Shown: piece by piece, positions 10,144 through 34,083 of the stretch
Numbering within the stretch: the first letter of the stretch is position 1
Layout of the letters: each line of letters starts with the position of its first letter
Source: Actinoplanes siamensis
GTDB taxonomy: Bacteria > Actinomycetota > Actinomycetes > Mycobacteriales > Micromonosporaceae
Reading direction: 5' to 3'
Assembly (NCBI RefSeq): GCF_016862395.1
Contig: NZ_BOMW01000016.1
Location: 1-64,000 of the forward strand
DNA length: 64,000 nucleotides
Notes under the pieces: model-generated
Databases searched by the model: none
Told to the model about the DNA's origin: nothing
Seen by the model: the letters and a program-made list of their open reading frames with translations, nothing else
Made by a program: the position numbers and the translations under genes

Positions 10144-12342
10144 TCAGACGCTTGCGGCCTGGGGCTGCTCGTCCGCGTTCGGCGCGGACGAGGCGGCCGC
10201 GGCCCGGCGCTCCAGGGCCGCGCCCTCGACGTCGAGCTCCGGCAGCCAGCGCAGCCAGCTCGGCAGCCACCACGCGGAGCGGCCGAGCAGGGAGAGCGCC
10301 GCCGGCACCGCGATCATGCGGATCACGAAGGCGTCGAAGGCGATGCCGATGGCCAAGGCGAACGCGATCGGCTTGATCGTGTCGTTGCCCTCCGGGACGA
10401 ACGCCGCGAAGACCGCGAACATGATCGTCGCGGCGGCCAGCACGACCGGGGCGGCCTGGCGGAAACCGGTGACGATGGCGTCGCGCGGGGCGGCGCCGTG
10501 GGCGTGCGCCTCGTGCATCCGCGACACCAGGAACACCTGGTAGTCCATGGCCAGGCCGAACAGGATGCCGACGATGATGATCGGCGCGAGGCTGATGATC
10601 GGGCCGGTGGAACCGGCGTTCACCACGTCGGCCAGCCAGCCCCACTGGAAGACCGCGACCGTGGCGCCGAACGCCGAGCCGATGGTGAGCAGGAAGCCGA
10701 GCACGCCCACCACCGGCACCAGCAGCGAGCGGAACACCAGCACCAGCAGCACGAACGCCAGGCCCACGACGAGCGCCAGGTAGACCGGGAGCGCCGCGTT
10801 GAGCTTCTGCGACACGTCGATGCTGATCGCGGTCTGCCCGGTGACGTACACCTTGGCGCCGTCACCGTCGTCGATCGTGTCCCGGATGCCGTGCACCAGG
10901 TCGACGGTCTTCTGGTCCTCCGCGCCCGAGCCGGGGATGAGCGTGATCAGCGCGGCGGACCGCGCCTGGTCCGGCCGCGGCGGGGTGGCCAGGGCGACGT
11001 CGGGCAGCGTGGCGACCCGGTTCTGCACGGTCGCCGCGTAGGCCACCGCGTTCGGCCCGTCGACCAGGATCAGCAGCGGGCCGCTGACGCCCGGCCCGAA
11101 CCGCTCGTCGATGATCGCGTCGGCCTTGGCCTGGGTGCTGCCCTCCGGCGAGCGCTGCGCCAGGGTGGTCTGCATCTTGACGAAGGGCAGCGCGATCACG
11201 CCCAGCGCGAGCACCGCGAGGAGCAGGCTGACCACCCGCTTCTGGCTCACCGTGTGCGCCCAGCCCCGGATGAAGCCGCGGCCGTCGGGGACCTCGTCCT
11301 GCGCGGCGGGCGGGACGTCGCGCAGCTTGCGCGGCAGCGCGCGCAGGCCGATGAACCCGAGGATCGCGGGGACCAGGGTGATCGCGACGAGCACGGCGAC
11401 CACGACGGTGGCCGACGCGGCCAGGCCCATCTCGGTGAGGAACGGGATGCCCACCACGGAGAGGCCGGCCAGCGCGATGACCACGGTGAGACCGGCGGTG
11501 ACCACCGCGGAGCCGGCCGTGCCCACCGCGTACGCCGCGGCGGACTCGACGTCCTTACCGGCGCGCAACTCGTGCCGGAAGCGGGTGACGATGAACAGCG
11601 CGTAGTCGATGCCGACCGCGAGGCCCAGCATCACCGCCAGGATCGGGGTGGTCGACTGGAGCTGGACGAAGCCGGAGAGCGTGGTGATGCCGGCGACGCC
11701 GATGCCGACGCCGACGATCGCGGTCAGCAGGTTCATCCCGGCGGCGACCAGCGAGCCGTAGCTGAGCGCGAGCACGATGAGCGCGACGACGACGCCGATG
11801 CCCTCCGAGGCGCCGCCGATGTCGGCGGCGTTGCTCAGCGCCTCACCGCGGGCCTCGACGGTCAGCCCGCCGGTGTGCGCCCGGTCGAGCGCGGCGCCGA
11901 TCGCCTCCCGCTCCTCGTCGGTGACCTCGGACGGCTGCACGCCGTACGTGACGGTGGTCAACGCCGTGCTCAGGTCCCGGGAGACCGACGGGTTCCGCTT
12001 GTCGAACGGGTCGCTGACACCGACCACGCCGGGCAGCTTGCCGAACGCCGCCACGGACTGCCCGACCTGACCGGCCAGCGCCGGATCGGTGATCTTCTGC
12101 CCGGCCGGCGCCTGGAACACCACCTGCACGGTCGCGCCGGCCGAGGCGTCGCCGAACCGGTCCTTCATCAGGTCCAGCGCGATCGTCGACTCCTGGCCGG
12201 GGATCCGGAACGTGTTGACGGTCTCGCCGGAGAGTTTGACCGCGCCGAAGGCCACGGCCAGCAGGGCGAGCAGCCAGACGACCGTGACGATGATGCGATG
12301 CCGCACGGCGCCGAGGCCGAGACGGTGCAACAACGTTGCCAT
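10144..12342 (-). CDS. MMPL-family RND transporter
   Basis: A large inner-membrane transporter of 732 residues with the two-fold MMPL/SecDF architecture. There are two sets of transmembrane helices, each preceded by an extracytoplasmic loop. The family proton-relay motifs are GIDYALFIVTR (about 244-254) and GLAMDYQVFLVSR (about 596-608). Members export lipids or hydrophobic drugs using the proton gradient. It sits 16 nt downstream of a TetR gene on the same strand, so it is probably the efflux target of that repressor. AGGGA precedes ATG 12342. Confidence 0.93.
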   Translation of the reverse strand: MATLLHRLGLGAVRHRIIVTVVWLLALLAVAFGAVKLSGETVNTFRIPGQESTIALDLMKDRFGDASAGATVQVVFQAPAGQKITDPALAGQVGQSVAAFGKLPGVVGVSDPFDKRNPSVSRDLSTALTTVTYGVQPSEVTDEEREAIGAALDRAHTGGLTVEARGEALSNAADIGGASEGIGVVVALIVLALSYGSLVAAGMNLLTAIVGVGIGVAGITTLSGFVQLQSTTPILAVMLGLAVGIDYALFIVTRFRHELRAGKDVESAAAYAVGTAGSAVVTAGLTVVIALAGLSVVGIPFLTEMGLAASATVVVAVLVAITLVPAILGFIGLRALPRKLRDVPPAAQDEVPDGRGFIRGWAHTVSQKRVVSLLLAVLALGVIALPFVKMQTTLAQRSPEGSTQAKADAIIDERFGPGVSGPLLILVDGPNAVAYAATVQNRVATLPDVALATPPRPDQARSAALITLIPGSGAEDQKTVDLVHGIRDTIDDGDGAKVYVTGQTAISIDVSQKLNAALPVYLALVVGLAFVLLVLVFRSLLVPVVGVLGFLLTIGSAFGATVAVFQWGWLADVVNAGSTGPIISLAPIIIVGILFGLAMDYQVFLVSRMHEAHAHGAAPRDAIVTGFRQAAPVVLAAATIMFAVFAAFVPEGNDTIKPIAFALAIGIAFDAFVIRMIAVPAALSLLGRSAWWLPSWLRWLPELDVEGAALERRAAAASSAPNADEQPQAASV

Positions 12343-12358
12343 GGGAGATTTCCCTTGT

Positions 12359-12952
12359 TCAGTGGGTGTGTGGATGCCCGAGCGCGTCGTAGGCGACGTC
12401 GACGAGCGTGGTGAGCGCGTCCGGGGTGAAGCAGTCCCGCAGGGCGACGGCGGCCACCGCGAGCGCCCCGAGCGCGCCGACGACCCGGACCGACCGGACC
12501 GGGTCGGTGAGCGACCCGGCGGTGCCGAAGGCGGCGCCGGTGAACGGCTCGTCGCCGAAGGCCACGGCCACCTCCTGGCCGATCGTCTCCAGCGCCGCGC
12601 CGAACTCGCTCTCCCGGTCGGCGAGCAGGCAGGACAACAGCAGCGCGACCGCGCCGGGCTGCCCCAGCGCCAGCCGGGCCACCCCGCTGATCACCGACCG
12701 GTCACGCTCCGGGCCGGGCGGCAGCGGCGCGGCCGCCGCGGCCACCTCCCGGATCTGCCCCACGCAGCGCTCGATGACCGCCTCCTGCAACGCCTCCTTG
12801 GTCGGGAAGCGGTGCAGCAGCCCGGTCTTCGAATAGCCCACCGCGTCCGCGATGCGCTGCACCGACGTCTCCTTGAAGCCGTGCCTGGCGAACAGGTTGG
12901 CGGCGGCGTCCAGGATCTCGTCGTCGATCTGCTGCTTGGTGGGGCGGGGCAT
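12359..12952 (-). CDS. TetR-family repressor of the MMPL transporter
   Basis: A 197-residue one-component regulator. The N-terminal TetR HTH (residues 8-55) reads ILDAAANLFARHGFKETS followed by VGYSKTGLLHRF; the C-terminal ligand-binding half is helical and variable. It is the first gene of a two-gene unit with the MMPL transporter. Two matching inverted repeats just upstream (12974-13009) suggest autoregulation. ATG 12952 is chosen because it gives the standard TetR N-terminus; the open frame further upstream is not TetR-like. Confidence 0.92.
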   Translation of the reverse strand: MPRPTKQQIDDEILDAAANLFARHGFKETSVQRIADAVGYSKTGLLHRFPTKEALQEAVIERCVGQIREVAAAAAPLPPGPERDRSVISGVARLALGQPGAVALLLSCLLADRESEFGAALETIGQEVAVAFGDEPFTGAAFGTAGSLTDPVRSVRVVGALGALAVAAVALRDCFTPDALTTLVDVAYDALGHPHTH

Positions 12953-12973
12953 AGGACCACCGTAGACCTTTCT

Positions 12974-13009
12974 GGACCAGACTGGTCCGTCAGGGACCGT
13001 GGTGGTCCC
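12974..13009. promoter_or_regulatory. Twin TetR operators
   Basis: Two inverted repeats with identical architecture, GGACC-N5-GGTCC: GGACCAGACTGGTCC at 12974-12988 and a second at 12994-13008 (extended to GGGACC...GGGTCC-type symmetry at 12993-13009). Their centres are exactly 20 bp apart, about two helical turns, which would suit two TetR dimers binding on one face of the DNA. Confidence 0.7.
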
Positions 13010-13321
13010 CACACATCGCACGGGTTTCAGTGCCCGGATCTTCGCAAGACAAGACCGGTTGCGGGGTACGGCATCACCGCGGTCACCGGATGATGCCGCC
13101 TCGTGCCGGCACACGCGCGGACCGCGCCGTGGCGCGTCCTGCGACCGGACGTCCCGCGTGGCGCGGCCGCCCCGCCCGCGCCGCAAGGATGCCCATGGAA
13201 ACCGCGCGCTGCTGGGAGCTCGTCGAGACGGCCGGCTCCGAGGCCGGTCCCGGCTGGGCCGGCCGCATCCGACCGGCGCCGGGGACCGTGGTGCCACCTC
13301 GGGCGTGATTGAGTGTTGCCC
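13010..13321. other. Intergenic, no supported gene
   Basis: About 310 bp between the TetR operators and the amidohydrolase start. Several short open frames overlap on both strands, but none has a ribosome binding site or recognisable protein features. The amidohydrolase promoter should lie here but no clear boxes are visible. Confidence 0.5.
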
Positions 13322-14950
13322 ATGCCCGCTGATCTGATCCTGACCAACGGTTCCGTCTTCACCGCCGATCCGTCGCGCGGGCCCGCCACCACGGTCGCGG
13401 TGCGGGACGGGCGGGTGGTCGCGGTCGGCGGCGACGAGGTCCGGGAGCTGGCCGGCCCGCGCACCGAGACGATCGACCTGGCCGGCCGGCTGCTGCTGCC
13501 CGGCTTCCAGGACGCGCACGTCCACGCCGTGATGGGTGGCGTCGAGCTGAACCAGTGCGACCTCACCGGGACCACCGATCTCGAGGAGTACCTGCGCCGG
13601 ATCCGGGCCTACGCCGACGCCCACCCCGGCCTGGAGTGGATCACCGGCGGGGGCTGGGCGATGGAGGTCTTCCCCGGCGGCGTCCCCGGCCGCGAGCTGC
13701 TCGACCTGGTCGTCCCCGACCGCCCGGTCTACCTGATCAACCGGGACCACCACGGCGCCTGGGTCAACAGCCGGGCCCTGGAGATCGCCGGCCTCGGCCC
13801 GGACACCCCCGACCCGGCGGACGGCCGGATCGACCGGCGGCCGGACGGTGTGCCGGCCGGCGGGCTGCAGGAGGGCGCCATGCAGTTGGTGGCGCGACTA
13901 CTGCCCGAAGTCACTTCGGCCGAGCGGTTGGCCGGGCTGCTGCGGGCCCAGACGCTGCTGCACTCGCTGGGCATCACGGCCTGGCAGGACGCGATGCTCT
14001 GCGCGACCAACGGCTATCCGGACGTCTCCGACGCCTATCTGGCGGCGGCCACCACCGGCCGGCTCACCGCGACCGTCGTCGGCGCGCTGTGGTGGGACCG
14101 CGAGCGCGGCGCCGAGCAGATTCCCGACCTGCTCGCCAAGCGGGAGCGGCACACCGTCGGCCGGCTGCGCGCCGGCAGCGTGAAGCTGATGCTCGACGGC
14201 GTCGCGGAGAATTTCACCGCGGCGATGACCCAGCCCTACCGTGACTCGTGCGGCTGTGCCACCACCAACGCGGGCCTGTCCTTCATCGACCCGGTGGCGT
14301 TGCGGGAACATGTGACGACGCTGGACTCGCACGGTTTCCAGACGCACTTCCACGCCCTCGGCGACCGCGCGGTGCGCGAGGCGCTGGACGCGATCGAGGC
14401 GGCCCGCGCGGCCAACGGGTTCCGCGACACCCGCCCGCACCTGGCCCACCTGCAGGTGGTGCACCCGTCCGACGTGCCCCGTTTCCGCGCGCTCGGCGTG
14501 ACGGCGAACCTGCAGGCGTTCTGGGCCGCGCACGAGCCGCAGATGGACGACCTGACGATCCCGTTCCTGGAGCCCGCCCTGGCCGCCCGGCAGTATCCGT
14601 TCGGCGACCTCTGGCGCGCCGGAACACACCTGGCAGCAGGCAGCGACTGGCCGGTGACCACGCCGGACCCGCTGCAGGCCGTCCACGTCGCCGTCAACCG
14701 GGCCCACCCCGGCAGCGGTTACCACCCGTTCCTGCCCGAGCAGAGCCTGGACCTGGCGACGGCGCTGACGGCGTACACGGCGGGCTCGGCCTTCGTGAAC
14801 CACCTGGACGACACCGGCAGCATCCGCCCCGGCTTCCGGGCCGACCTGGTCGTGCTGGACCGGGACCTCTTCGCCACCCCACCCGCCGAGATCGCCGGCG
14901 CCTCGGTCGCGATGACCCTCATCGACGGAGAACTGGTCCACGCGGCCTGA
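13322..14950 (+). CDS. YtcJ-like metal-dependent amidohydrolase
   Basis: A 542-residue amidohydrolase-superfamily enzyme of the YtcJ/AmiH type (amidohydrolase 3). The N-terminal small beta-sandwich (ADLILTNGSVFTAD) is followed by the metal-binding GFQDAHVHAV motif (HxH near residue 60), an internal SVKLMLDGV segment, an FHALGDRAVREALDAIE helix with a further His, and AAGSDWPV with the catalytic Asp, then a C-terminal LVVLDRD strand. The natural substrate of these enzymes is usually unknown. ATG 13322 lacks a good Shine-Dalgarno; GTG 13313 is an alternative. Confidence 0.88.
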   Translation: MPADLILTNGSVFTADPSRGPATTVAVRDGRVVAVGGDEVRELAGPRTETIDLAGRLLLPGFQDAHVHAVMGGVELNQCDLTGTTDLEEYLRRIRAYADAHPGLEWITGGGWAMEVFPGGVPGRELLDLVVPDRPVYLINRDHHGAWVNSRALEIAGLGPDTPDPADGRIDRRPDGVPAGGLQEGAMQLVARLLPEVTSAERLAGLLRAQTLLHSLGITAWQDAMLCATNGYPDVSDAYLAAATTGRLTATVVGALWWDRERGAEQIPDLLAKRERHTVGRLRAGSVKLMLDGVAENFTAAMTQPYRDSCGCATTNAGLSFIDPVALREHVTTLDSHGFQTHFHALGDRAVREALDAIEAARAANGFRDTRPHLAHLQVVHPSDVPRFRALGVTANLQAFWAAHEPQMDDLTIPFLEPALAARQYPFGDLWRAGTHLAAGSDWPVTTPDPLQAVHVAVNRAHPGSGYHPFLPEQSLDLATALTAYTAGSAFVNHLDDTGSIRPGFRADLVVLDRDLFATPPAEIAGASVAMTLIDGELVHAA

Positions 14951-32231: not shown

Positions 32232-32260
32232 TTGCCGGTCCGGGGCGGGCCTTCTAGGTT
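32232..32260 (+). promoter_or_regulatory. Promoter of the leader/tRNA locus
   Basis: TTGCCG (32232-32237) and TAGGTT (32255-32260) with 17-nt spacing, close to the actinobacterial housekeeping consensus. Transcription would start near 32267. The promoter is embedded in long inverted repeats: 32237-32249 pairs with 32317-32329, and GGACACAGC 32261-32269 pairs with 32298-32306. Confidence 0.6.
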
Positions 32261-32295
32261 GGACACAGCTTCCACGTCTCGAGGAGTTCAGGACG

Positions 32296-32343
32296 ATGCT
32301 GTGTCCGGACCTTTATCCCGCCCCGGATCGGTGGCGCGGCTGA
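32296..32343 (+). CDS. 15-codon leader ORF
   Basis: ATG 32296 opens MLCPDLYPAPDRWRG and stops at TGA 32341-32343. GAGGAG at 32281-32286 is 9 nt upstream, an excellent ribosome binding site for so short an ORF. The first seven codons include TGT, CTT and TAT, all rare in such a GC-rich genome. The start codon falls at the edge of the 3' arm of a perfect 9-bp inverted repeat (GGACACAGC/GCTGTGTCC). The ORF ends 18 nt before the stem of an intrinsic terminator. Position and codon content fit a leader peptide that senses translation speed; this is inference. Confidence 0.55.
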   Translation: MLCPDLYPAPDRWRG

Positions 32344-32361
32344 GCCCGCCCGCACATGTGC

Positions 32362-32396
32362 GCCGCTGATCCCCGTACGGGAAAGGCGGCTTTTTT
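32362..32396 (+). terminator. Intrinsic terminator after the leader ORF
   Basis: GCCGC (32362-32366) pairs with GCGGC (32386-32390) around the self-complementary CCCGTACGGG, followed by six T residues (32391-32396). The palindrome GCACATGTGC (32352-32361) abuts it. This is the only terminator in the window with a clean T-tract and it separates the leader from the tRNA cluster. Confidence 0.75.
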
Positions 32397-32412
32397 GTGT
32401 TTGGTGGAATCC

Positions 32413-32488
32413 TGCCCTCGTAGCCCAACCGGCAGAGGGCCGGTGTTGAGGACGCCGGTGGTGCGCGTTCGCATCGCGCCGGGGGGCA
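32413..32488 (+). tRNA. Degenerate tRNA-Leu(GAG)-like element
   Basis: It folds as a cloverleaf: acceptor GCCCTCG (32414-32420) against CGGGGGGC with one extra G, D stem GCCC/GGGC with GG in the loop, anticodon stem CGGTG/CGCCG with loop TTGAGGA (anticodon GAG), and T stem GCGCG/CGCGC with loop TTCGCAT. Departures from a normal tRNA are the bulged acceptor, no base 26, C instead of the conserved A58, and a short variable loop although Leu tRNAs are class II. It may be a pseudo-tRNA or a noncanonical array tRNA. Confidence 0.45.
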
Positions 32489-32509
32489 ACGGTGTTCCGG
32501 ACGCGCCAC

Positions 32510-32590
32510 GCGGGCGCGCCGACGTCGGAGAGTCGGGCCCGGCTGTAAACCGGGTGCTTCGCTGAGCAGGTTCGAATCCTGCCGCCCGCA
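32510..32590 (+). tRNA. tRNA-Tyr (GTA)
   Basis: A perfect 7-bp acceptor (GCGGGCG/CGCCCGC, discriminator A), D stem CCGA/TCGG, anticodon stem CCCGG/CCGGG with loop CTGTAAA (anticodon GTA), an 11-nt variable arm, and T arm GCAGG-TTCGAAT-CCTGC. The D loop is unusual (no A14; C at position 8). CCA is not encoded. Confidence 0.75.
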
Positions 32591-32600
32591 CGCACCACCC

Positions 32601-32671
32601 GATCGCATGCCCGAGTGGTCAGGGAACCGCCTGCAAAGCGGTGCACGCCGGTTCGAATCCGGCTGCGATCT
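32601..32671 (+). tRNA. tRNA-Cys (GCA)
   Basis: Acceptor GATCGCA/TGCGATC with discriminator T, D stem CCC/GGG, anticodon stem ACCGC/GCGGT with loop CTGCAAA (anticodon GCA), 4-nt variable loop, and T arm GCCGG-TTCGAAT-CCGGC. All stems are perfect. It lies 10 nt after the Tyr tRNA, so the two are probably one transcript. Confidence 0.92.
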
Positions 32672-32739
32672 CGTTGAACCGGCTGACGGCAACGGCGGTA
32701 CACCCCGGCAACAGCAGCTCCCACCAGGGGGAGACCGGG

Positions 32740-34083
32740 ATGACCGCCGTGCCCCAGCCTCGAGTCCTCACCTTCCGCCGTTCCGTCCGCGTCGCGCGCG
32801 CCGCGATCGTGGCATTCATCGTGTTCAACGTCGTGGCCGTGCAGCTGATGTTCGTCGCCGCCGGACCCGGCAAGAATCCGCCCGGTACGATCGGCCGGCT
32901 CCTCGGCCTCTACCTGGCCCTCGCCATGGCCCTGCAACTGCTGCTGGTGGCCCGCCTGCCGGTGGTCGACCGGGCGTTCGGCATGGACCGCCTCACCGTC
33001 TGGCACCGCTGGACCGGCCTGGCGATCTTCTGGCTGGCCCTGGCGCACCCCGCGTTCGTGGTGCTCGGATTCGCCAGGCTGGACGGCATCCCGATCCTGG
33101 CCGAGACGGCGAATCTGGCCCGCCAACTCCCGGTCCTGCTCGGCATGATCGCGGCCGGCCTGCTCATGGTCATCGTGGCGCTGTCCGTCCGGGCCGCCCG
33201 GCGCCGGCTGTCCTACGAGGCGTGGCATGCCATTCATCTGCTTCTGTACGTGGTGGTCCTGCTCGGCGTGCTGCACCAGGTGTACGAGGGCACCGCGTTC
33301 CGGGTCAACCCGGTCACGCAGGTGTACTGGTGGGGGCTGTGGGCGTTCGCGCTCGGCGCCCTGATCGCCGGCCGCCTGGTCGTCCCGATGGTCCGCAACT
33401 CCCGGCACCGGTTGCGGGTCGCCGCGGTCGTCGAGGAGTCCGACGACACCGTCTCCGTCCACATCACGGGCCGTGAGCTGGAGAAACTGCCGGCCCGAGC
33501 GGGGCAGTTCTTCCTCTGGCGCTTCCCCGGCCACAACCGGTGGTGGCAGGTCAACCCGTTCTCGCTCTCCGCCACGCCGAACGGCCGCTCGCTGCGCCTC
33601 ACCGCGAAGGGCGTCGGGGCGACCAGCGCCGGGCTGCGGGATCTGCCGATCGGGTCGCGGGTCTACGCGGAAGGTCCGTACGGGGCGTTCACGGCGGCGC
33701 ACCGCACCCGGGGCGCGACGGTGCTGATCGCCGGCGGGATCGGCGTGACCCCGATCCGCGCGCTGTTGGAGGACCCGGATCTGACCGGTCACGTGGTGGT
33801 GCTCTACCGGGTGCGGGAGGTGCGCGACGCGGTCCTTCTGGGAGAGATGCAAAACCTCGCCGATGTACGGCAGGCGCGCCTGCACCTGCTGACCGGCCGC
33901 ACCGGCGGCGGCCATCGCCCGTTCGCGCCGGAACAGTTGGTCGCGCTGGTCCCCGACATCACCGCCCGGGACGTGTACGTCTGCGGCCCGGACGCCATGA
34001 CCGCGGCTGTGCTGGACAGTCTCCGGCGCCTGCGAGTCCCGCCCCGCCAGATACACGCCGAACGCTTCCACCTCGCCACCTGA
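32740..34083 (+). CDS. Ferric-reductase-like transmembrane flavoprotein
   Basis: A 447-residue membrane oxidoreductase. The N-terminal half has about six helices with His residues in WHRWTG, LAHPAF and WHAIHLLLYVVVLLGVLHQV that suit two b-type hemes. The C-terminal half is a ferredoxin-NADP reductase module with NPFSLSATP (flavin), GGIGVTPIRALLED and VCGPDAM (NAD(P)H). It moves electrons from cytoplasmic NAD(P)H across the membrane to an external acceptor such as Fe(III) or oxygen. GGGGGAG is 6 nt before ATG 32740. Confidence 0.9.
   Translation: MTAVPQPRVLTFRRSVRVARAAIVAFIVFNVVAVQLMFVAAGPGKNPPGTIGRLLGLYLALAMALQLLLVARLPVVDRAFGMDRLTVWHRWTGLAIFWLALAHPAFVVLGFARLDGIPILAETANLARQLPVLLGMIAAGLLMVIVALSVRAARRRLSYEAWHAIHLLLYVVVLLGVLHQVYEGTAFRVNPVTQVYWWGLWAFALGALIAGRLVVPMVRNSRHRLRVAAVVEESDDTVSVHITGRELEKLPARAGQFFLWRFPGHNRWWQVNPFSLSATPNGRSLRLTAKGVGATSAGLRDLPIGSRVYAEGPYGAFTAAHRTRGATVLIAGGIGVTPIRALLEDPDLTGHVVVLYRVREVRDAVLLGEMQNLADVRQARLHLLTGRTGGGHRPFAPEQLVALVPDITARDVYVCGPDAMTAAVLDSLRRLRVPPRQIHAERFHLAT

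What the first reader, a model, noticed from the sequence alone, without database searches (positions are those of the whole stretch)
32232..32671. Leader ORF, intrinsic terminator and three tRNAs: possible tRNA-feedback attenuator
Seen: a good promoter (TTGCCG-N17-TAGGTT), a strong ribosome binding site, a 15-codon ORF MLCPDLYPAPDRWRG with the rare codons TGT, CTT and TAT among its first seven, a T6 intrinsic terminator, then tRNA-Leu(GAG)-like, tRNA-Tyr(GTA) and tRNA-Cys(GCA). The three anticodons read exactly CTT, TAT and TGT. Inference: slow decoding of the leader when these tRNAs are scarce would alter folding of the downstream RNA and let transcription reach the tRNA genes, a self-adjusting tRNA supply loop. 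The codon match could be chance, and the tRNAs could have their own promoter.
Basis: partly seen in the sequence, partly recalled or inferred. Interest (0 to 1): 0.78.

Follow-up and report, generated by a model that had tools for sequence, protein, structure and literature searches.

The report
Leader peptides that police tRNA arrays
In Actinoplanes and related bacteria, clusters of spare tRNA genes often sit behind a tiny gene whose codons list the tRNAs of that cluster, so the cell can probably switch on the spare set when one of those tRNAs runs short.

Summary
In detail: promoter-like site, ribosome site, 15-codon ORF with rare TGT, CTT and TAT codons, T6 terminator, then tRNA-Leu(GAG)-like, tRNA-Tyr(GTA) and tRNA-Cys(GCA). 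Many tRNA clusters (1 to 35 genes) in the genus, in other genera of its family and in one more family have a leader ORF and terminator in front, and the leader contains the amino acids whose tRNAs follow: 186 of 199 (null 141.8, sd 4.9), second set 287 of 299 (null 227.8, sd 5.9). Where two related leaders serve clusters that differ, the leaders differ in the expected direction 43 times, in the opposite direction 4 times. Codons match even at isoacceptor level. The leader's 3' end can pair with the terminator's 5' arm (60 of 63), the antiterminator of a ribosome-mediated attenuator; in the window it has 14 pairs. I conclude these are tRNA-supply attenuators: finished leader translation ends transcription, a stall lets it reach the tRNA genes. 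Regulation itself is inferred, untested. Ten searches of an open-access library showed no description. The biological trigger is open.

The parts
32232..32260 (+). promoter-like site TTGCCG-N17-TAGGTT
   Evidence: TTGnC-N16..20-TAnnnT occurs within 110 nt before the leader start in 41 of 63 leaders, 0.4 on average in mononucleotide shuffles; not found by the strict scan
32282..32286 (+). ribosome binding site AGGAG
   Evidence: blind caller
32296..32343 (+). leader ORF MLCPDLYPAPDRWRG; control codons TGT (codon 3), CTT (codon 6), TAT (codon 7)
   Evidence: MLCxxxYLAPDRWRG in the eight Leu-Tyr-Cys relatives
32325..32338 (+). 5' strand of the antiterminator, inside the last codons of the leader
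   Evidence: 14 pairs with 32359-32372, -29.5 kcal/mol, z -3.0
32359..32372 (+). 3' strand of the antiterminator; overlaps the 5' arm of the terminator
32362..32396 (+). intrinsic terminator (hairpin 32362-32390, T6)
   Evidence: stretch 32344-32397 -20.5 kcal/mol including a small upstream hairpin, z -1.1
32414..32487 (+). tRNA-Leu(GAG)-like gene, short variable loop, probably decaying in this genome
   Evidence: no Rfam tRNA match at E<=1; 9 of 9 relatives 49.2-51.1 bits
32510..32591 (+). tRNA-Tyr(GTA)
   Evidence: ARAGORN; below the Rfam tRNA threshold, as in the relatives
32601..32672 (+). tRNA-Cys(GCA)
   Evidence: 58.7 bits

Best explanation
The block is a ribosome-mediated transcription attenuator that controls supernumerary tRNA genes. 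RNA polymerase starts after 32232-32260 and a ribosome follows on the leader. If all codons are read without delay the ribosome reaches the stop codon, covers the 3' end of the leader and frees the 5' arm of the terminator: transcription ends before the tRNA genes. If charged tRNA-Cys, -Leu or -Tyr is scarce the ribosome waits at TGT, CTT or TAT, the leader's 3' end (GGATCGGTGGCGCG) pairs with the terminator's 5' arm, and the polymerase goes on into exactly the genes for these tRNAs: a negative-feedback loop. In larger clusters the leader is longer and holds codons for nearly every tRNA of the cluster. Shown by sequence: ORF, terminator, competing antiterminator, codon-anticodon covariation across loci. 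Inferred: translation, stalling, read-through, and that scarce tRNA (rather than scarce amino acid) is the relevant signal.
For: A caller blind to tRNA identity found leaders before 65 of 93 tRNA operons in 85 loci. Leader amino acids cover 186 of 199 cluster amino acids over 33 leader groups against 141.8 (sd 4.9, max 159 of 5000) for same-length random leaders; the same DNA in frames +1/+2 gives 117 and 122. Exchanging leaders among all 65 clusters: 0 of 20000 shuffles reach the observed values. Isoacceptor level: 210 of 225 anticodons have a codon they read, synonymous-codon shuffles 195.1 (sd 4.0), 1 of 2000 reach it. Second set of 32 calls: 287 of 299, null 227.8 (sd 5.9, max 249), frames 196 and 205. 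39 sister pairs: 43 support, 4 contradict. Antiterminator: at least 5 pairs between leader tail and terminator arm in 60 of 63; own arm -20.62 against -18.74 (sd 0.28) with swapped arms, 0 of 10000; covariation 0.147 against 0.117 (sd 0.008), 0 of 500. Window: terminator probability 0.99 with a ribosome on the stop codon, 0.11 with one held upstream, 0.13 with none. Leaders use rare codons: TAT 40 of 64 Tyr, TGT 45 of 66 Cys.
Against: No expression data. Equilibrium folding shows the switch (terminator more likely by more than 0.2 with the ribosome at the stop) in only 26 of 63 leaders, mean 0.91 against 0.69; in L084 the masked stop removes the terminator as well. In 12 of 63 the tail binds the arm less than 1 sd better than shuffled tails. 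Of the 8 outer antiterminator pairs only 1 shows changes on both sides; most covariation lies in the inner hairpin. With clusters of at most 5 amino acids, one per coarse group (6 clusters), leader exchange reached the observed values 26 and 104 times in 20000. Leaders also hold amino acids without a tRNA in the cluster. L069 keeps Cys codons though no tRNA-Cys is found; L134 has tRNA-Val but no Val codon. 28 of 93 operons had no blind call, 8 of them single tRNAs. In the second set rare codons are less marked (TAT 7 of 24, TGT 9 of 24). The window's own tRNA-Leu looks damaged.
Confidence: 0.87

Rival explanations
1. Amino-acid attenuator: the leader senses lack of amino acids, as in classical biosynthetic attenuators, and the extra tRNAs are made as part of a starvation response.
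For: The same anatomy responds to any cause of low charged tRNA; sequence cannot tell the causes apart.
Against: What follows these leaders is tRNA genes (protein genes further on were not surveyed), and more tRNA does not relieve lack of an amino acid; isoacceptor-level matching (L287 with TTG and AAA codons before Leu-CAA and Lys-TTT) is not needed for sensing an amino acid.
Confidence: 0.25
2. General translation-stress switch: any slow ribosome (antibiotic, cold) opens the cluster and codon identity does not matter.
For: Any stall before the last codons would work mechanically.
Against: Codon content tracks cluster content between sister loci, 43 against 4.
Confidence: 0.08
3. The tRNAs are transcribed from their own promoter and the leader with its terminator belongs to something else.
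For: The strict scan finds no promoter at the leader; clusters with a boxA-like element after the terminator could in principle start near there.
Against: Leader and cluster stay together and covary in two families; 16 of 20 stretches fetched around model hits in other genera have two or more tRNAs downstream.
Confidence: 0.04
4. Chance or shared ancestry produces the codon match.
For: Window-type loci are related by descent; three codons in one leader are weak evidence alone; several leaders of the second set resemble leaders of the first.
Against: 33 leader groups, other genera, and above all differences between sister leaders.
Confidence: 0.01

Closest known systems
Leader-peptide (ribosome-mediated) transcription attenuators of amino-acid operons such as trp, his, leu (recalled)
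   Same: Short ORF with control codons, intrinsic terminator, competing antiterminator whose 5' strand is covered by a ribosome at the stop codon
   Different: Controls tRNA genes, not enzymes; control codons match the encoded anticodons, up to most of the amino acids in one leader
tRNA array units of actinobacteria (Morgado and Vicente 2018, PMC5966550; 2019, PMC6515697; passages seen)
   Same: Dense supernumerary tRNA genes; an HNH endonuclease inside some large arrays here, as a passage of PMC9569102 reports for mycobacteria
   Different: The terms leader, attenuat and promoter do not occur in the main text of those two papers; no leader with terminator was called before two mycobacterial plasmid arrays
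T-box riboswitches (recalled)
   Same: Sense tRNA charging to control transcription
   Different: Bind tRNA directly without translation; no T-box match in the window

Membership tests
ribosome-mediated transcription attenuator | short ORF with ribosome site between promoter and terminator | tested here: met
   promoter-like motif in 41 of 63, translation itself not shown
ribosome-mediated transcription attenuator | control codons related to the product of the operon | tested here: met
ribosome-mediated transcription attenuator | intrinsic terminator before the structural genes | tested here: met
ribosome-mediated transcription attenuator | antiterminator exclusive with the terminator, its 5' strand under a ribosome at the stop codon | tested here: met
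   window; set: 60 of 63; equilibrium switch clear in only 26 of 63
ribosome-mediated transcription attenuator | read-through rises when the control codons cannot be read | not testable with these tools
   needs expression data
tRNA array unit | many tRNA genes at high density (19 to 39 in the passage seen) | tested here: not met
   window locus has 3; relatives reach 31 (L063) and 35 (L284)
T-box riboswitch | match to the Rfam T-box model | tested here: not met
   in the window only tRNA-Cys reaches a gathering score

The most novel reading that the evidence does not exclude
These clusters are a self-indexed reserve translation kit: the leader is a list of the spare tRNAs behind it, and loss of any of them, for instance to a tRNA-cutting toxin or phage-linked nuclease, opens the whole operon, which supplies divergent replacement tRNAs and in two genomes a second RNase P RNA to process them.
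Probability: 0.4. Interest if true: 0.95.

Novelty: new variant of a known kind. Interest (0 to 1): 0.88.

Why it matters
tRNA gene expression in bacteria is usually treated as constitutive or growth-rate controlled (recalled). Here codon-anticodon matching writes the regulatory logic into DNA, so that the input of each switch can be read off and predicted for many loci. It gives a testable role to unexplained tRNA arrays and a natural multi-tRNA shortage sensor.

Tried and rejected
Leader as a repeated element of the own genome: the degenerate leader pattern hits once; the other own-genome match to the leader region (L002) has no tRNA near. Of 28 hits of the pattern CCNGAYCGNTGGCGNGGNTGA in 354 family genomes, 10 are leaders before tRNAs and 18 have no tRNA in the fetched stretch. 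Of 17 stretches in the named-genome scan 14 are Actinoplanes or Paractinoplanes; the other three have no tRNA near and are taken as chance. A plasmid source of the window block: no match; a large array (L138) meets no plasmid or phage record covering 80% of it; among the 15 rows listed of each search the matches are short, mostly at tRNA genes in phages, partly at protein genes in plasmids. Leaders before arrays on plasmids of Mycolicibacterium, Mycobacterium, Tsukamurella and Arthrobacter: no terminator, hence no leader, within 900 nt (L298, L299, L301, L302; for L301 only 224 nt and for L302 only 811 nt lie before the first tRNA); the Nonomuraea array L300 has a candidate leader and terminator. 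Preferential change of the anticodon stem in array tRNAs, as escape from anticodon nucleases might leave: not evident; acceptor 0.54, anticodon stem 0.50, T arm 0.54 identity to housekeeping tRNAs. Grouping at 50% over whole peptides merged too much because of the shared tail; groups on the leader body.

Dropped rows: searches use 63 of 65 leaders (L089 and the second L100 call left out as wrong ORFs; both kept); the arm test uses 62. and model R1 use 42 of the 63. One search examined 40 loci: 32 calls, 8 without (2 of these without any tRNA); L247 and L284 are one locus counted twice there, and the L281 call looks like a wrong ORF; L284 and L281 were dropped, which uses 93 loci. The caller is that, but I had already looked at many of these loci, they are high-scoring hits I chose, and several leaders resemble leaders of the first set. 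Met was left out of the counts, kept. The trimming of the last six codons and the grouping threshold were chosen after seeing the data.

Full report
OBSERVATION. The leader is ATG CTG TGT CCG GAC CTT TAT CCC GCC CCG GAT CGG TGG CGC GGC TGA. The strict consensus scan lists neither promoter nor terminator, but folding gives the hairpin 32362-32390 followed by T6.

THE SAME BLOCK ELSEWHERE. In 67 genomes of the genus the leader type of the window occurs in 10, own included. All ten stand before tRNA genes: nine before Leu-Tyr-Cys with MLCxxxYxAPDRWRG, and one (G060, L012/L062) before Leu-Tyr with MLYARLYLAPDRWRG; that leader has no Cys codon and its 10-kb stretch no tRNA-Cys.

MANY OTHER tRNA CLUSTERS HAVE LEADERS. 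Reading the clusters found showed an ORF and a terminator before many of them. Examples, leader then tRNAs: MRRWQYPYLVLTGRRS - Trp Gln Tyr; MYCWQQPCHYPGPIGRRS - Trp Gln Tyr Cys; MRCLYYAPDRWCG - Tyr Cys; MSISLLSGRRRWRN - Leu(CAG) Ser Ile; MTLQALRLLDRWRC - Leu Thr Leu; MTTLTALHLLDRWSC - Leu Thr Leu Val (Val is not in the leader); MSFYPSYEPGRWRC - Pro Ser Met Tyr; MSYLPSLESSLEHERWSG - Leu Leu Ser Tyr; MLSKASITSQRLMSRDQVVRFVSSRGRWRR - Arg Phe Leu(CAA) Gln Asp Ser Ile Lys(TTT) Val, with the codons TTG and AAA.

STATISTICS. A caller that does not see the tRNAs (ribosome site, ORF, stop 20-130 nt before a hairpin with a T run) returned a leader for 65 of 93 operons in 85 loci; the loci were fetched because they resemble the window's tRNAs, so this is not a survey of all tRNA clusters. 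Of the 28 without a call, 8 are single tRNAs and some show a leader when read by eye (for example L062, L065, L125). Over 33 leader groups the leaders hold 186 of 199 cluster amino acids; same-length leaders drawn from the pooled residues hold 141.8 (sd 4.9, maximum 159 in 5000); the same DNA read in the other frames 117 and 122. At codon level 210 of 225 anticodons find a codon they can read, against 195.1 (sd 4.0) after shuffling synonymous codons, 1 of 2000 reaching it. Exchanging leaders among all 65 clusters, or among 12 coarse groups, never reached the observed values in 20000 shuffles; with only the 6 coarse groups of at most 5 amino acids, 26 (leader residues in the cluster) and 104 (cluster amino acids in the leader) of 20000 did. 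In a second set, found with a covariance model of tail and terminator only, the figures are 287 of 299 against 227.8 (sd 5.9, maximum 249, which counts one locus twice; misses listed). Among 39 matched pairs of related leaders (93 loci), an amino acid whose tRNA is in only one of the two clusters is found only in that cluster's leader 43 times and only in the other leader 4 times; 118 times both leaders have it, 5 times neither.

NATURAL EXPERIMENTS. L066 (Tyr-Cys) and L110 (Cys only) have nearly identical leaders, MCRVCYAPDRWCG and MCRVCCTPDRWCG: TAT has become TGT where no tRNA-Tyr is found. Against: L069 keeps TGT TGC while no tRNA-Cys is found. In G027 a second copy of the window block has decayed, the leader's start codon and frame included. 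In the window itself codon 8 is CCC where the eight relatives L004-L011 have CTC, and the tRNA-Leu gene fails the Rfam model that the same gene of 9 of 9 relatives passes: codon and tRNA seem to decay together, though CTT at codon 6 remains.

SWITCH. The last codons of the leader (GGTGGCGC and variants) pair with the terminator's 5' arm, by at least 5 pairs, in 60 of 63 leaders when the 3' arm is not yet made; against shuffled tails the mean z is -2.3, and 12 of 63 lie above -1. Own arms fit better than arms of other loci (-20.62 against -18.74, sd 0.28, 0 of 10000), and the tail class with GGGAGGC fits best to its own arms. On the alignment of 42 the outer helix is 89.9% paired but only 1 of its 8 pairs has changes on both sides; the inner hairpin around the stop codon has 5 of 6; covariation 0.147 against 0.117 (sd 0.008), 0 of 500. 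In the window the antiterminator has 14 pairs, -29.5 kcal/mol, z -3.0, against -20.5, z -1.1, for the terminator stretch. With a ribosome masking the stop codon the terminator probability is 0.99; with a ribosome upstream 0.11; with none 0.13. Over 63 leaders the means are 0.91 (at the stop) and 0.69 (upstream), and only 26 show a shift above 0.2. That calculation is at equilibrium; attenuation works during transcription, so it neither proves nor disproves the switch in the others.

RARE CODONS. In 63 leaders TAT makes 40 of 64 Tyr codons, TGT 45 of 66 Cys codons and CTT 30 of 186 Leu codons; in three window ORFs and part of a fourth 3 of 57, 2 of 12 and 3 of 262. In the second set TAT is 7 of 24 and TGT 9 of 24.

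RANGE. Model R1 matches 236 of 354 family genomes at E<=1e-3, in 26 of 44 genera; weak matches may be ordinary terminators. Of 20 stretches fetched around hits in other genera, 18 have a tRNA downstream, 16 at least two. In an order sample 31 of 298 match at 1e-5, four of them in another, unnamed family; all six stretches fetched from these four genomes have a called leader before tRNAs. In a class sample 3 of 394 match, all in the window's family. A Nonomuraea plasmid array has a candidate leader and terminator; four other actinobacterial plasmid arrays gave none.

WHAT THE CLUSTERS ARE. They look supernumerary: the own genome has separate Leu-GAG and Tyr genes, and array tRNAs share on average 0.70 identity with housekeeping ones of the own genome (450 compared). 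A separate housekeeping tRNA-Cys was not seen in the stretches fetched from this draft genome. Array tRNA-Leu lack the long variable arm in 82 of 83. Four large arrays read carry an HNH-endonuclease-like gene (two checked against Pfam), and 2 of 17 array loci scanned, one of the own genome and one of G060, hold an RNase P RNA that is the genome's second.

LITERATURE. Ten searches of the open-access library showed no paper joining tRNA arrays or tRNA operons with leader-peptide attenuation. Three of them were broad (976, 417 and 59 papers) and only the 20, 15 and 12 best were listed. The one hit for leader peptide, tRNA operon and attenuation together is a review of pyrrolysine systems (listing only). 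Passages of PMC5966550, PMC9569102 and PMC6515697 were seen. Preprints and most subscription journals are not held, so absence there is not established.

CONCLUSION. The attenuator reading is well supported by comparative sequence. The cause of the shortage it answers is unknown; replacement of tRNAs destroyed by nucleases is attractive because more tRNA would help then and would not help in starvation, but nothing here tests it, and the anticodon stem of array tRNAs is hardly more diverged (0.50 identity) than acceptor stem and T arm (0.54 each).

Noticed in passing
L188 688-1046 (own genome, contig C119); L063 3883-4249: A second RNase P RNA (217 and 221 bits) lies inside a large tRNA array; G000 and G060 have two RNase P RNAs, G037 and G053 one.
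   Followed up: partly
array loci: Array tRNA-Leu genes lack the long variable arm (73-77 nt in 82 of 83; housekeeping 84-87 nt in the own genome).
   Followed up: partly
15 of 65 leaders, between terminator and first tRNA, e.g. L133, L138: An element like TTGACAACTCCACAGCGGATGG resembles TTTGAGAACTCAACAGGG, which lies just upstream of 16S rRNA in 3 of 3 places in G037 (no hit in the draft G000); perhaps a boxA-type antitermination site (name recalled).
   Followed up: partly
L063 2625-3074; also array gaps of L100, L247 (same locus as L284) and L248: HNH endonuclease gene between array tRNA-Gly and tRNA-Gln genes.
   Followed up: partly
L138, gaps 11538-12469 and 12542-13441, minus strand: Two ORFs of 310 and 295 aa sit inside an array; the first region matches a phosphotransferase gene of a Pseudonocardia plasmid.
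   Followed up: no
L008 1-420, reverse strand: Decayed second copy of the window block in G027: start codon lost, stop inside the leader, tRNA-Leu broken.
   Followed up: partly
window 32234-32246 with 32320-32331, and 32262-32269 with 32298-32305: Promoter spacer GCCGGTCCGGGGC is nearly complementary to the leader's GCCCCGGATCGG, and GACACAGC pairs with GCTGTGTC across the ribosome site; meaning unknown.
   Followed up: no
L189 (own genome contig C37), L188 with L192 (contigs C119 and C14): Further tRNA clusters in the own genome: Trp-Leu with leader MRWQAST...RRWRG, and array pieces at contig ends, the leader of one cut by the end of C119.
   Followed up: partly
window 32740-34080: The gene after the block is a ferric-reductase-like oxidoreductase; by eye a similar gene start follows the blocks of L110 and L069, so the block may sit at one old chromosomal place.
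   Followed up: no
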